A DNA stretch of 32,877 nucleotides, from NCBI RefSeq assembly GCF_003576405.1, contig NZ_QWGT01000004.1, forward strand, positions 1 to 32,877. The letters are read 5' to 3'. Shown here piece after piece: positions 5,816 through 9,154 of the stretch. Made by a program: the position numbers and the translations under genes. This DNA is from Clavibacter lycopersici (lineage in GTDB: Bacteria; Actinomycetota; Actinomycetes; Actinomycetales; Microbacteriaceae). The number at the start of each line of letters is the position of its first letter. Position 1 is the stretch's first letter. The notes beneath the pieces are model-generated. The model did no database searches. It was not told the origin of the DNA and saw only the letters and a list, made by a program, of their open reading frames with translations.

Positions 5816-7369
5816 TCAGCTCCAGCCTGCGTCGCGGAGGGCCGCGCGCGCGTCGTCACGGGCGGAGAACGGGATCTTGCGCCCGGCCACCTCGTGGTAG
5901 TCCTCGTGCCCGGGTCCGGCGACGAGGATGGTGTCCCCCTCGCCGACCAGCGACACCGCCGTGCGGATCGCGGTGGCGGGGTCGGGCACCTCGTGGATCT
6001 CGCGGTCGGGCACCGCTGCCTTCGCGCCCGCGATGAGGCTCGCGCGGATCGACGCCGGGTCCTCGTAGCGCGGGTGGTAGTCGGTGATGACCACGACGTC
6101 GGCGAGGCGGGCCGCGATGGCGCCCATCTCGGCGCGCTTCGTGGTGTCCCGGTCGCCGTCGGCGCCGAACACCATCACGAGCCTCCCGGGCGTGAACGGC
6201 CGGAGCGCCTGCAGCGTCTGCTCGAAGGCGTCGGGCGTGTGCCCGTAGTCGACGAAGAAGAGGGGCCCGGTGTCGCCGGACACGCGCTCGGCGCGACCGG
6301 GGATGTAGGCCCGGATGCCGCCGTCGCGGTCGAGCACGTGCGCCACGGCGTCCAGGTCGTAGCCGGACTCGACGAGCATGACGATCGCGAGTCCCGCGTT
6401 CGCGGCCATGAACCAGCCCGGCACGGGCACGCGCGAGACGAGCACGCGGTTGTCGGGCCCCTCGAGGCGGAAGCCGGTGGAGTCGGGGGTCTGCTCGAGG
6501 ACCGTCACGGTCCAGTCGGCGTCGACGCCGGGCTTCGAGGTGATGGTCGTCATCGGGATGCGGGATCCCTCGACGATGCGCTGGCCCCACTCGGTGTCGA
6601 GCGAGACGACGCCGCGACGCGCGCGGTCGGGGTCGAAGAACGCGGCCTTCGCCTCGAAGTACTCCTCGAAGTCGGCGTAGTCGTCGAGGTGGTCGTGGCT
6701 CAGGTTGATGAAGGCGGCCACGTCGAACACGAGGCCGTCGACCCGGTGCCGGGTGAGCGCCTGCGCCGACACCTCGATGGTGACCGCGCGGACCTCGGCC
6801 TCCCGCATGCGCGCCAGGAGCGCGTGCAGCTCGCTCGCCTCGGGCGTGGTGAGGCGGCTGGTGATGCTCTCCTCGCCGATGCGGCGCTCGGCCGTCGAGG
6901 TGAGCCCGGTCACGACGCCGAGCTGGCGGAGCAGCCCGTCGAGCAGGTACACCACGCTCGTCTTGCCGTTCGTCCCCGTGACGCCGTAGAGCGTCGCCGG
7001 GTTCTCCGCCGAGCGGTGGACCCACGCGGCGATGTCGCCGAGGGCGGCCCGGGGGTCGGGCGTGAGGATCACCGGCAGCCCGGAGGCCTGCGCGTCGGCG
7101 AGCCCGTCGGGATCCGTGAGCACCGCGACCGCGCCGCTCTCGGCCGCCGCCGTCGCGAAGCGGGCGCCGTGCGCACGCGCCCCGCGGAGCCCCACGTAGA
7201 GGTCGCCCGGCTGCACGTCGCCGGAGGAGAGGGTCACGCCGGTGACCTCCACGTCGTCCACGTCGCCGGAGACGTCGAGCGCGAAGTCGCTCACCAGGCC
7301 GGACAGCGACCGTGCGACGGGATGCTCGGGGCGGAGGGCGGGAGTGGCAGGGGAGGTCATCGCCCTCAT
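5816..7369 (-). CDS. murE: MurE, UDP-MurNAc-dipeptide:diamino acid ligase with altered substrate motif
   Basis: MurE adds the third stem-peptide residue (a diamino acid) to UDP-MurNAc-L-Ala-D-Glu. The 517-residue product has the P-loop GVTGTNGKTS (about 129-138), the central segment NLSHDHLDDY (about 222-231), and a C-terminal domain with GPGHED (about 485-490). In meso-DAP ligases the substrate loop reads D-D-N-P-R; here residues 430-434 read D-Y-H-P-R, so two of these positions differ while Pro and Arg remain. The family assignment is secure; the amino acid added is not. L-2,4-diaminobutyrate is a reasonable guess for this lineage. ATG 7369 is 3 nt from the ftsI stop; ATG 7360 is an alternative start. 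Confidence 0.94.
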   Translation of the reverse strand: MRAMTSPATPALRPEHPVARSLSGLVSDFALDVSGDVDDVEVTGVTLSSGDVQPGDLYVGLRGARAHGARFATAAAESGAVAVLTDPDGLADAQASGLPVILTPDPRAALGDIAAWVHRSAENPATLYGVTGTNGKTSVVYLLDGLLRQLGVVTGLTSTAERRIGEESITSRLTTPEASELHALLARMREAEVRAVTIEVSAQALTRHRVDGLVFDVAAFINLSHDHLDDYADFEEYFEAKAAFFDPDRARRGVVSLDTEWGQRIVEGSRIPMTTITSKPGVDADWTVTVLEQTPDSTGFRLEGPDNRVLVSRVPVPGWFMAANAGLAIVMLVESGYDLDAVAHVLDRDGGIRAYIPGRAERVSGDTGPLFFVDYGHTPDAFEQTLQALRPFTPGRLVMVFGADGDRDTTKRAEMGAIAARLADVVVITDYHPRYEDPASIRASLIAGAKAAVPDREIHEVPDPATAIRTAVSLVGEGDTILVAGPGHEDYHEVAGRKIPFSARDDARAALRDAGWS

Positions 7370-7372
7370 CTC

Positions 7373-9154
7373 TCAGTAGGTCGTCGGGAGGTTCGGGGAC
7401 GGCACGCTGGAGGGCGGGACCCGGTAGGTCTTCAGTACCTGGGACATGATCTTCTGGAAGACCGGCGCCGCGGCCGCCGAGGACTTCATGGTATCCGGAT
7501 TGGCCAGGCTGATCGACACGACGTACTGGGGGTCCTCGGCCGGCGCGAGCCCGGCGATCGACACCAGGTAGTTCTTGCCGTACTTGCCGTCGGCCTCCGC
7601 GACCTGCGCCGTCCCGGACTTCGCGGCCACCCGGTAGCCGGGGATCGTGAGGTCCTTGGAGAGGTGCCCGTCGGTGACCACGGTCTCGAGCATGTTCACG
7701 GTCGAGTCGGCGGCCTGGGGGGAGATGACCTGCGTGCCCGTCGTGTCGGGCTGGTCCGTCACGGTGCCGTCGGCCTGCTTGCAGCCGGAGACGAGCGACA
7801 GCGGCAGCTTCACGCCGTGGTTGCCGATGGTCTGGTAGATGCTCGCGACCTGCAGCGCCGTGGTCGTGAGGCCCTGGCCGAACATGGTCGCGTAGTTGGT
7901 CTGCGGGTCCCACTCCTGCCACGGGCGGACGAGGCCGCTGCTCTCGCCGGGGAAGTCGATGGCCGTCTTCTCGCCGACGCCGAACGCCTTGAGGTAGTCG
8001 TAGCGGTCGGAGGCGGACAGGCGCTCGCCGAGCGCCGATATGCCCGTGTTCGAGGAGTCCATGAGCACGCCCGCGAGCGTGAAGTGCAGGTCGGGGTGCA
8101 CGTAGCTGTCGCTCAGCTTCACGTCCGGACGGGTGAACGTGTACGGCGCGACGACCCGTGTGGAGGGATCCGCCTTGCCCGAGTCGAGGAGCGCCGCGGC
8201 GGTCACGGCCTTGAGCGTGGATCCGGGCTCGAACGGGGACCCGAACGCGCGGCTCCCCCGGTCCTCGGGCTTCGTCGCGGTCACGTCGTTGGGGTCGACG
8301 GACGGGTACTCGGCGACGGCCAGGACCTTGCCCGTCTTCACCTCGACGATGGTCGCGTGCCCGTAGTCCGCGCCGACCTTCACGGCCTGCTCGGCCACCG
8401 CGGTCTGCGCGAAGTACTCGAGGTCCGTGTCGATGTTGGTCATCACGTCGCTGCCGTCGATGGCCGGCTTCTGCGTGACGGTGCTGCCCGCGATCGGGAC
8501 GCCGTCCGCGCCGCGCTCGTACGTCTGCGCGCCGTCCTGGGCGGCGAGGCACGAGTCGTACTCCTGCTCGAGCCCGGCCTTGATCGTCCCGTCGCCCGCG
8601 ATGTAGCCGAGGATGCTGCCCGCGATCTGCCCGTTGGGGTACGTGCGGCTCGAGACGGCCTGGAAGTAGATCCACGGGATCTTCAGGTCCCGGATGGCGA
8701 GGTACGCGTCGACGTCGACGCCACGGGTCACGTAGCCGAAGAGCGACTTCGGGTCCTTGTCGAGCGCGCCCTGGATGAGCCCGTCGATCTCCTCGGGCGT
8801 CTGCCCGGTGATCGCGCCCAGCTGCGCCTCGGCCTCCGCGAGCGACACGTCCTCCTTGACCGGCTTCCCGTCGTCACCCGTCACCGTGCGCGTGAAGCCG
8901 GCCGCCTTGGACGGGTCCATCGTCACGTCGTACCGCAGGACGCTGTTCGCGAGGACGTTCCCCTCCGCGTCGTAGATGCTGCCCCGGACCCCGGGCAGGA
9001 CCTGCGAGATCGCCCGCTTGCCGAGCGACTCCTCGTTGAGCTCCGACGCCTGCACGACCTGGATGTCGATGAGCTTCACCACGAAGACCCCGATGACGGC
9101 GAGGATCGCGATGAGGGAGAAGGCGATGCGCCGACGGTTCGAGATCGTGCTCAC
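7373..9154 (-). CDS. ftsI: FtsI/PBP3-type septal transpeptidase
   Basis: FtsI is the class B penicillin-binding protein that cross-links septal peptidoglycan outside the membrane, working with FtsW. The 593-residue product has a short cytoplasmic N-terminus, one membrane helix (about 11-29), a dimerisation domain beginning near RGSIYDAEGNVLANSV (about 58-72), and the transpeptidase domain. Active-site motifs are S312-TLK315, SSN (367-369) and KSGT (512-515). No PASTA domain follows. The start is GTG 9154, with GAGAGG/AGAGGA about 8 nt upstream. A 91-bp gap separates it from the ftsL-like gene, and murE follows after 3 nt. Confidence 0.95.
   Translation of the reverse strand: MSTISNRRRIAFSLIAILAVIGVFVVKLIDIQVVQASELNEESLGKRAISQVLPGVRGSIYDAEGNVLANSVLRYDVTMDPSKAAGFTRTVTGDDGKPVKEDVSLAEAEAQLGAITGQTPEEIDGLIQGALDKDPKSLFGYVTRGVDVDAYLAIRDLKIPWIYFQAVSSRTYPNGQIAGSILGYIAGDGTIKAGLEQEYDSCLAAQDGAQTYERGADGVPIAGSTVTQKPAIDGSDVMTNIDTDLEYFAQTAVAEQAVKVGADYGHATIVEVKTGKVLAVAEYPSVDPNDVTATKPEDRGSRAFGSPFEPGSTLKAVTAAALLDSGKADPSTRVVAPYTFTRPDVKLSDSYVHPDLHFTLAGVLMDSSNTGISALGERLSASDRYDYLKAFGVGEKTAIDFPGESSGLVRPWQEWDPQTNYATMFGQGLTTTALQVASIYQTIGNHGVKLPLSLVSGCKQADGTVTDQPDTTGTQVISPQAADSTVNMLETVVTDGHLSKDLTIPGYRVAAKSGTAQVAEADGKYGKNYLVSIAGLAPAEDPQYVVSISLANPDTMKSSAAAAPVFQKIMSQVLKTYRVPPSSVPSPNLPTTY

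What the first reader, a model, noticed from the sequence alone, without database searches (positions are those of the whole stretch)
5816..7369. MurE substrate loop reads D-Y-H-P-R instead of D-D-N-P-R
In meso-DAP ligases the D-D-N-P-R loop contacts the incoming diamino acid. Here two positions are changed (Asp to Tyr431, Asn to His432), while Pro433 and Arg434 and the GHE motif remain. Microbacteriaceae such as Clavibacter are known for B-type peptidoglycan with 2,4-diaminobutyrate, so this may be a specificity code for a shorter diamino acid.
Basis: partly seen in the sequence, partly recalled or inferred. Interest (0 to 1): 0.6.

Follow-up and report, generated by a model that had tools for sequence, protein, structure and literature searches.

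The report
Cell-wall ligase with remodelled amino-acid pocket
The enzyme that adds the third amino acid to the cell-wall building block in Clavibacter and its relatives has a rebuilt binding pocket, and two of its residues seem to tell whether the added amino acid is diaminobutyrate or homoserine, which could let cell-wall chemistry be read from genomes.

Summary
In detail: the genome's only MurE match (5816-7369, minus strand, between ftsI and murF) reads D430-Y431-H432-P433-R434. His432 is no diaminobutyrate mark: Rhodoluna, Frondihabitans and Curtobacterium, with reported or recalled homoserine-type walls, share it. Rhodoluna lacicola discriminates: its wall holds both, diaminobutyrate apparently in the bridge, and its MurE is H431+Q489. 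In 168 MurEs of 85 genus codes H431 never meets E489 (0 of 55); F/Y431 mostly does (67 of 72). About three switches on the tree mean ancestry confounds this; one nested lineage reverts 431, 432, 489 and 375 together. No enzyme activity was tested.

The parts
5816..7369 (-). murE, 517 aa, UDP-MurNAc-tripeptide synthetase; the only MurE match in this genome
   Evidence: G000: 1 match, 15 of 15 candidates scored
6068..6082 (-). D430-Y431-H432-P433-R434 loop (Y431 = E. coli D413, H432 = N414, R434 = R416)
   Evidence: roles of the E. coli residues from PMC9434261 and PMC3829189
5903..5917 (-). G485-P486-G487-H488-E489 (G485 = E. coli G464, E489 = E468); E489 is Gln in the enzymes of homoserine-type walls
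6146..6163 (-). A403-D404-G405-D406-R407-D408; R407 corresponds to E. coli R389 (L-centre of the incoming amino acid)
   Evidence: the R407 column is Arg in 167 of 168 Microbacteriaceae MurEs; role from PMC9434261, numbering by alignment
6239..6250 (-). D374-Y375-G376-H377; the 375 column is Tyr in 34 of 34 genera of the F/Y431+E489 class and Phe in 34 of 34 of the H431 class; its role is unknown
7373..9154 (-). ftsI-type penicillin-binding protein (transpeptidase), next gene upstream in the dcw cluster
   Evidence: Pfam PF00905, PF03717
4405..5859 (-). murF, next gene downstream (overlaps the end of murE)
   Evidence: Pfam Mur ligase domains; identification as MurF from its place

Best explanation
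This is the cell's only MurE and it most likely adds L-2,4-diaminobutyrate (L-DAB) as the third residue of the B-type stem peptide. R407 and R434 hold the alpha-carboxylate of the incoming amino acid, as R389 and R416 do in E. coli. The far end of the pocket is rebuilt for a shorter side chain: the Asp that in E. coli and S. aureus helps bind the distal amine (D413/D406) is an aromatic residue (Y431) that shortens the pocket, and E489 (E. coli E468, S. aureus E460) is kept as the acid that pairs with the gamma-amine of DAB. In sister enzymes that add L-homoserine, whose side chain ends in a hydroxyl, the acid is replaced by Gln (Q489), 431 by His and 375 by Phe. Shown: the sequence, the conservation, the coupling of 431, 489 and 375, and the match to reported wall types in the few named genera. 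Inferred: the substrate, the role of each residue here, and that wall-type labels give the residue at position 3.
For: Only MurE match in the genome, in the dcw cluster. Loop conserved in 10 of 10 Clavibacter; 79 of 80 named loci have D-[F/Y]-H-P-R with GHE. Named genera reported with DAB have F/Y431+E489: Clavibacter, Subtercola vilae (L061 is the described strain DB165), Agreia (L261; 'L-DAB connected to D-Orn'), Cryobacterium, Compostimonas. B2beta types have H431+Q489: Rhodoluna lacicola (G010: 1,430,433 bases and in PMC4156110; wall with Dab, Gly, Hse, Ala, Glu and the peptide D-Ala-D-Dab; MurE L113) and Frondihabitans sp. PAMC 28766 (own MurE L371; B2beta). 0 of 55 H431 and 67 of 72 F/Y431 sequences have E489. 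375 separates the two classes 34 to 34 and was not used to define them. On a tree of 82 rows built without the pocket columns L183 (g82) lies inside the H/Q clade (fork 100/94), yet carries Y431, N432, E489 and Y375 together; its genus mate L190, not in the tree, has the same residues. S. aureus E460A nearly abolishes lysine use (PMC3829189, passage).
Against: No assay, no ligand structure. 431 and 489 need only 3 changes each on the later tree (3 and 5 on the earlier one), and the independent-pairs test had 2 pairs (p 0.5), so shared ancestry explains most of the coupling. In the earlier tree L183 stood in the same clade (98) but beside its base with support 15, so the reversal rests on the later tree. 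Position 3 is inferred from wall-type labels, not measured for these strains; only Rhodoluna's partial hydrolysate places D-Dab on D-Ala. Compostimonas is labelled B1, which does not say where its L-DAB sits. L052, named Cryobacterium sp. BB307, is H431/Q489; its contig length and MurE equal those of G236 in group code g75, while other Cryobacterium are g78, so I take it as misnamed. The DABA aminotransferase family TIGR00709 follows the classes loosely: over cut-off in 27 of 66 class-A and 7 of 54 class-B/C genomes, and in none of the 4 Cryobacterium, 7 Plantibacter, 2 Subtercola and 2 Rhodoluna counted. S. aureus MurE shows that loop residues alone do not set specificity (A409R gave no DAP activity).
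Confidence: 0.72

Rival explanations
1. Lineage marker: the 431/489/375 changes are neutral or compensatory differences between two old MurE clades, and specificity is set elsewhere or by amino-acid pools, as argued for S. aureus MurE. (This does not exclude that the enzyme adds L-DAB; it denies that these residues decide it.)
For: Few independent changes; 14 columns separate the two classes with mutual information of 0.75 or more; PMC3829189 concludes that lysine use rests on the lysine pool rather than on enzyme specificity (abstract and passages).
Against: 431 and 489 are positions known to bind the amino acid and are D/E and E in 43 of 43 MurEs outside the family; a column not used in the definition, 375, follows them without exception; L183 and L190 carry the reverted state at all of them.
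Confidence: 0.22
2. The remodelled pocket serves B-type precursors in general (for example Gly at position 1 or the D-Glu alpha-carboxylate), and both main classes take the same third residue.
For: Both main classes have P486 and mostly H432, unlike the other families; P486 is found in 132 of 168 family MurEs.
Against: It does not explain why the acid at 489 is missing in all 55 H431 rows, nor the Rhodoluna/Agreia contrast.
Confidence: 0.1
3. The enzyme is still a meso-DAP or lysine ligase (R434 and GHE kept) and DAB enters only in the interpeptide bridge.
For: R434 and E489 are retained; the best NCBIfam model is a DAP-ligase equivalog at 471 bits.
Against: That model's cut-off is 476, not reached; the lysine-ligase model scores 209 against 536; the D413 and N414 equivalents, which contact the DAP side chain, are changed; R416 also binds the L-centre carboxylate, so its retention does not need DAP.
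Confidence: 0.05

Closest known systems
meso-DAP-adding MurE (E. coli 1E8C, M. tuberculosis 2WTZ/2XJA, M. thermoresistibile 8G6P)
   Same: Same fold (Z 41-44, 30-41% identity); equivalents of R389, R416, G464 and E468 kept
   Different: D413 to Tyr, N414 to His, K465 to Pro, G-x-G-G before DRD to G-A-D-G
L-Lys-adding MurE (S. aureus 4C12)
   Same: Acid at the E460 position kept; a single distal amine to bind
   Different: DNPA motif there, Arg at the fourth position here; the D406 equivalent is Tyr
Thermotoga maritima MurE (4BUB, DDPR)
   Same: Keeps the motif's Arg although its wall has Lys (PMC9434261, passage)
   Different: Asp at the 431 column, GRGHE instead of GPGHE
H431/Q489 MurEs of Rhodoluna, Frondihabitans, Curtobacterium
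   Same: His432-Pro-Arg, P486, GADGDRD; same family, and these three lie beside ftsI and murF
   Different: His431, Gln489, Phe375; homoserine-type walls, for Curtobacterium recalled
DAB- and homoserine-adding activities in extracts of Corynebacterium insidiosum and C. poinsettiae (Wyke and Perkins, 1970s; recalled, not read)
   Same: The activities proposed here, in the same two lineages by their modern names (recalled)
   Different: No gene or residues were known then

Membership tests
MurE, UDP-MurNAc-tripeptide synthetase (TIGR01085) | Score over the curated cut-off | tested here: met
   392.3 bits against 257.3
MurE, UDP-MurNAc-tripeptide synthetase (TIGR01085) | Three Mur ligase domains, TGTNGKT ATP site | tested here: met
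   PF01225, PF08245, PF02875 all over cut-off; T131-T137 invariant in the 14 rows of A1
MurE, UDP-MurNAc-tripeptide synthetase (TIGR01085) | Fold of solved MurEs | tested here: met
   Z 43.6, rmsd 2.6 over 492 residues with 2XJA
MurE, UDP-MurNAc-tripeptide synthetase (TIGR01085) | Adds a third residue to UDP-MurNAc-dipeptide | not testable with these tools
   needs an assay
meso-DAP ligase subtype | D-N-P-R motif | tested here: not met
   Y-H-P-R
meso-DAP ligase subtype | Score over the NF001124 equivalog cut-off | tested here: not met
   471 bits against 476, a narrow miss
L-lysine ligase subtype (NF010628) | Score over cut-off | tested here: not met
   209 bits against 536
L-DAB-adding MurE (proposed here, no curated model seen) | L-DAB is the preferred amino acid | not testable with these tools
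   inferred from wall chemistry of named relatives
L-DAB-adding MurE (proposed here, no curated model seen) | F/Y431 with E489 | tested here: met
   Y431, E489

The most novel reading that the evidence does not exclude
MurE carries a small readable switch for the chemistry of the third murein residue: F/Y431+E489+Y375 reads a side-chain amine (L-DAB), H431+Q489+F375 reads a hydroxyl (L-homoserine), and further states (H431+K489 in Mycetocola, g2 and g34; Q431+L489 in the small-genome groups g14 and g81) read residues not yet assigned. The family has repeatedly changed wall type by acquiring an ectopic murE of another class while the dcw copy decayed or vanished.
Probability: 0.45. Interest if true: 0.72.

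Novelty: new variant of a known kind. Interest (0 to 1): 0.55.

Why it matters
The diamino acid of the wall is a character used to tell genera of Microbacteriaceae apart (stated in PMC10757982, passage), yet in the library searches I met no residue-level rule for DAB or homoserine. If 431/489 set the third residue, wall type could be predicted for uncultured species, and a pair of related enzymes (amine-reading and hydroxyl-reading) would let MurE specificity be dissected, which is hard with the distant S. aureus/E. coli pair. The apparent reversal in g82 and the ectopic replacements give ready-made test pairs.

Tried and rejected
His432 as the DAB mark: rejected, because it is in homoserine-type enzymes and is Asn in Agreia.

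DABA aminotransferase (TIGR00709) as a genomic proxy for DAB walls: enriched in class A (27 of 66 against 7 of 54 genomes, Fisher p 0.001, relatedness not corrected) but under cut-off in sampled DAB genera and in Rhodoluna, so not used.

Plasmid look-ups whose listed rows named no genome: (a short contig that looks like an rRNA operon). Papers whose passages gave nothing on position 3 for the genera compared: PMC10757982, PMC6113628, PMC9862828, PMC12089995, PMC7143919; PMC3681970 was read in passages for the motif only.

The first tree (95 rows) had long branches; the later one (82 rows) leaves out 13 long or divergent rows. They differ: the H431/K,Q489 rows of Mycetocola, g2, g18, g34 and g56 stand apart and inside the H/Q region. 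Rows dropped before the 431 x 489 count: L137 (fragment) and L171 (decayed, no loop) of 170. L161, a decayed copy, stayed in that count and is the single F431/Q489 row. The trees also leave out L161 and copies with K/R at 486, and take one row for each genus and 431/489 state. The 168 rows are those I fetched (at least one for each of 85 genus codes), not a random draw. The classes were defined by 431, 489 and 486, so only the other columns there (375 among them) are independent of the definition.

The predicted model gives no coordinates here, so side-chain positions were not measured.

Full report
Observation. The finding's ORF is real: 5816-7369 on the minus strand, 517 aa. It is MurE by TIGR01085 (392.3 bits, cut-off 257.3), by its three Mur ligase domains, by solved relatives and by fold (model pLDDT 89.8, Z 43.6 to M. 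tuberculosis MurE). It lies in a dcw cluster in the order rsmH, ftsI, murE, murF, mraY, murD, ftsW, all on the minus strand (names beyond the Pfam domains follow from gene order). It is the only MurE match in the genome (15 of 15 candidates scored). Residues 430-434 read DYHPR and 485-489 GPGHE.

Extent. One search kept 80 named loci of genome contigs (the best 80 of 102 relatives, so close ones; the titles name Microbacteriaceae or genera that I know as such; the search patterns did not include the loop). Positions 431-432 are F-H in 65, Y-H in 14 and H-H in 1, with Asp before and Pro-Arg after in all 80. All ten Clavibacter genomes read DYHPR. I then read 168 MurEs with at least one for each of the 85 genus codes among the 398 family genomes searched (two further rows without a loop were dropped). 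Outside the family, 43 MurEs from 18 other families of the order (43 of the 92 non-family genomes) have D or E at 431, K or R at 486 and E at 489 in every case. The non-acidic 431 and P486 are therefore a change within Microbacteriaceae as far as sampled.

The coupling. In the 168, H431 goes with Q (48), K (6) or L (1) at 489 and never with E; F/Y431 goes with E in 67 of 72; the remaining 41 rows have other residues at 431, among them 22 with Asp. Taking one row per genus and class (34 and 34), Tyr against Phe at 375 separates the classes without exception although it was not used to define them. Residue 432 does not: it is His in most rows of both classes and Asn in seven genera with F/Y431+E489.

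What the positions do. In E. coli D413, N414, G464 and E468 contact the D-centre end of DAP, R389 the L-centre and R416 both (PMC9434261, passage read). In S. aureus D406 and E460 bind the lysine epsilon-amine, and E460A nearly abolishes activity (PMC3829189, passages read). By the alignments, D413 = Y431, N414 = H432, R416 = R434, E468 = E489 and R389 = R407. R434 is thus expected to stay even without DAP, since R416 also binds the L-centre. The step from this to 'shorter pocket for DAB' and 'Gln for a hydroxyl' is my inference.

Match with wall chemistry. Class F/Y431+E489: Clavibacter, 2,4-diaminobutyric acid (PMC9190974, passage); Subtercola, B2gamma, DAB, where the described strain S. vilae DB165 is L061, and Agreia, 'L-DAB connected to D-Orn' (PMC5945732, passages; Agreia sp. 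COWG is G238 by a plasmid of equal length, 64,315 bases, with identical first 12,000 bases; its MurE L261 reads DYNPR and GPGHEDYQE); Cryobacterium, B2gamma DAB, and Compostimonas, L-DAB but labelled B1 (PMC7033078, table). Class H431+Q489: Rhodoluna lacicola, whose wall has Dab, Ala, Gly, Hse and Glu with the peptide D-Ala-D-Dab, type B2beta (B10) (PMC4156110, passages). G010 has exactly its published closed length, 1,430,433 bases, and the 16S oligonucleotide of the description (the three other genomes of the group that I tested have it too, so this confirms the group only). Its MurE L113 reads DHHPR and GPGHQDYRDI. Frondihabitans, B2beta, Orn: G285 is PAMC 28766 by a 135,614-base plasmid and its own MurE L371 reads DHHPR with GHQ. 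Curtobacterium: G295 is strain MCBD17_035 by a 56,505-base plasmid, MurE L370 DHHPR with GHQ; its B2beta type with homoserine is recalled, not read. That B2beta means L-homoserine at position 3 is recalled from the Schleifer-Kandler scheme (paper not held) and agrees with Rhodoluna's composition. The key contrast: in Rhodoluna DAB and in Agreia ornithine sit in the bridge, and the MurE class follows the third residue in both, not the bridge.

Limits. On a tree of 82 rows built without the pocket columns, 431 and 489 each need at least three changes, and the independent-pairs test on the first tree had only two pairs. So the association is mostly between clades. The best internal evidence is L183, nested in the H/Q clade at a 100/94 fork yet with Y431, N432, E489 and Y375 all back; its genus mate L190, not in the tree, has the same residues; both lie beside ftsI and murF. 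In the first tree L183 stood near the base of that clade with little support. The wall of that genus (g82) is unknown to me. L052, named Cryobacterium, is H431/Q489; its contig length and MurE equal those of G236 in g75, while other Cryobacterium are g78, so the name is probably wrong. TIGR00709 tracks the classes only loosely.

A wider pattern. In several lineages a murE was found without ftsI or murF in the flanks held (1.5 to 5 kb): Mycetocola (L115, L373), g2, g18, g34, g85, parts of g17 and g68 (L114, L116), Gryllotalpicola (L120), and the KGHE or KGHK copies of g4, g19, g20, g25, g58, g59 and g82. L115 and L117 sit between dxr-like and metalloprotease-like genes, L114 and L116 beside an EF-Tu-like gene (names recognised by eye from the first residues). 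In G068 the dcw copy L161 has lost the loop while an ectopic H431/Q489 copy exists; in Gulosibacter the dcw copies L171 (G020) and L377 (G. molinativorax, G352) lack the loop; G254 has an F431/E489 dcw copy (L194) and an H431/Q489 copy on another contig (L272). I read this as wall-type change by gene replacement; it is untested.

Verdict. The DAB- and homoserine-adding activities themselves were probably measured in extracts long ago (Wyke and Perkins; recalled). What looks new is the 431/489/375 switch and the replacements; I met no mention of either in the library searches, which cover open-licence papers only and of which I saw the listings and the papers named above.

Noticed in passing
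L161 (G068) and L116 (G068): dcw copy of murE decayed (loop reads TDFPPG, no GHE) while an ectopic H431/Q489 murE lies beside an EF-Tu-like gene.
   Followed up: partly
L171 and L129, L160 (G020); L377 and L375, L382 (G352, Gulosibacter molinativorax): dcw murE without the loop, plus two further MurE-like genes elsewhere in each genome (a GGHGHR type, and a KGHE type with an EDDLK loop).
   Followed up: partly
L155, L156, L158 (g58: G058, G269, G305): The best MurE match is an ectopic one with TASDPR and GKGHK; in L155 it lies near a large PBP-like gene and a RidA-like gene (recognised by eye). G386 of the same genus code has the ordinary DHHPR enzyme in the dcw cluster.
   Followed up: partly
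L141-L145, L147-L154, L159, L170: Ectopic murE with DDDVH and GKGHE in genomes of six genus codes (g4, g19, g20, g25, g59, g82), 33-37% identical to the window's MurE; substrate unknown. L170 has almost no flank.
   Followed up: no
L376 (Curtobacterium sp. MCBD17_035, G295): A second MurE-like gene away from ftsI/murF (ADHHPR, GPGLTDY, GDKD instead of GDRD) besides the dcw one.
   Followed up: no
L115, L117, L122, L123, L124: MurEs with DSGHS or DSGHT and GLA.[K/Q] in place of GPGHE (H431 with K or Q at 489), without ftsI/murF in the flanks where tested (L115, L117, L122, L124); third residue not assigned. I recall lysine in Mycetocola walls.
   Followed up: partly
window 5816-7369 minus, residues 199-205: E-V-S-A-Q-A-L replaces the E-V-S-S-H-A/G-L of the E. 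coli, M. tuberculosis and T. maritima enzymes; perhaps tied to Gly at position 1 of B-type stems.
   Followed up: no
G000:C190:1011-2264: The window's genome has a full-length diaminobutyrate aminotransferase match (TIGR00709, 477.6 bits), but sampled genomes of several DAB genera have none over cut-off.
   Followed up: partly
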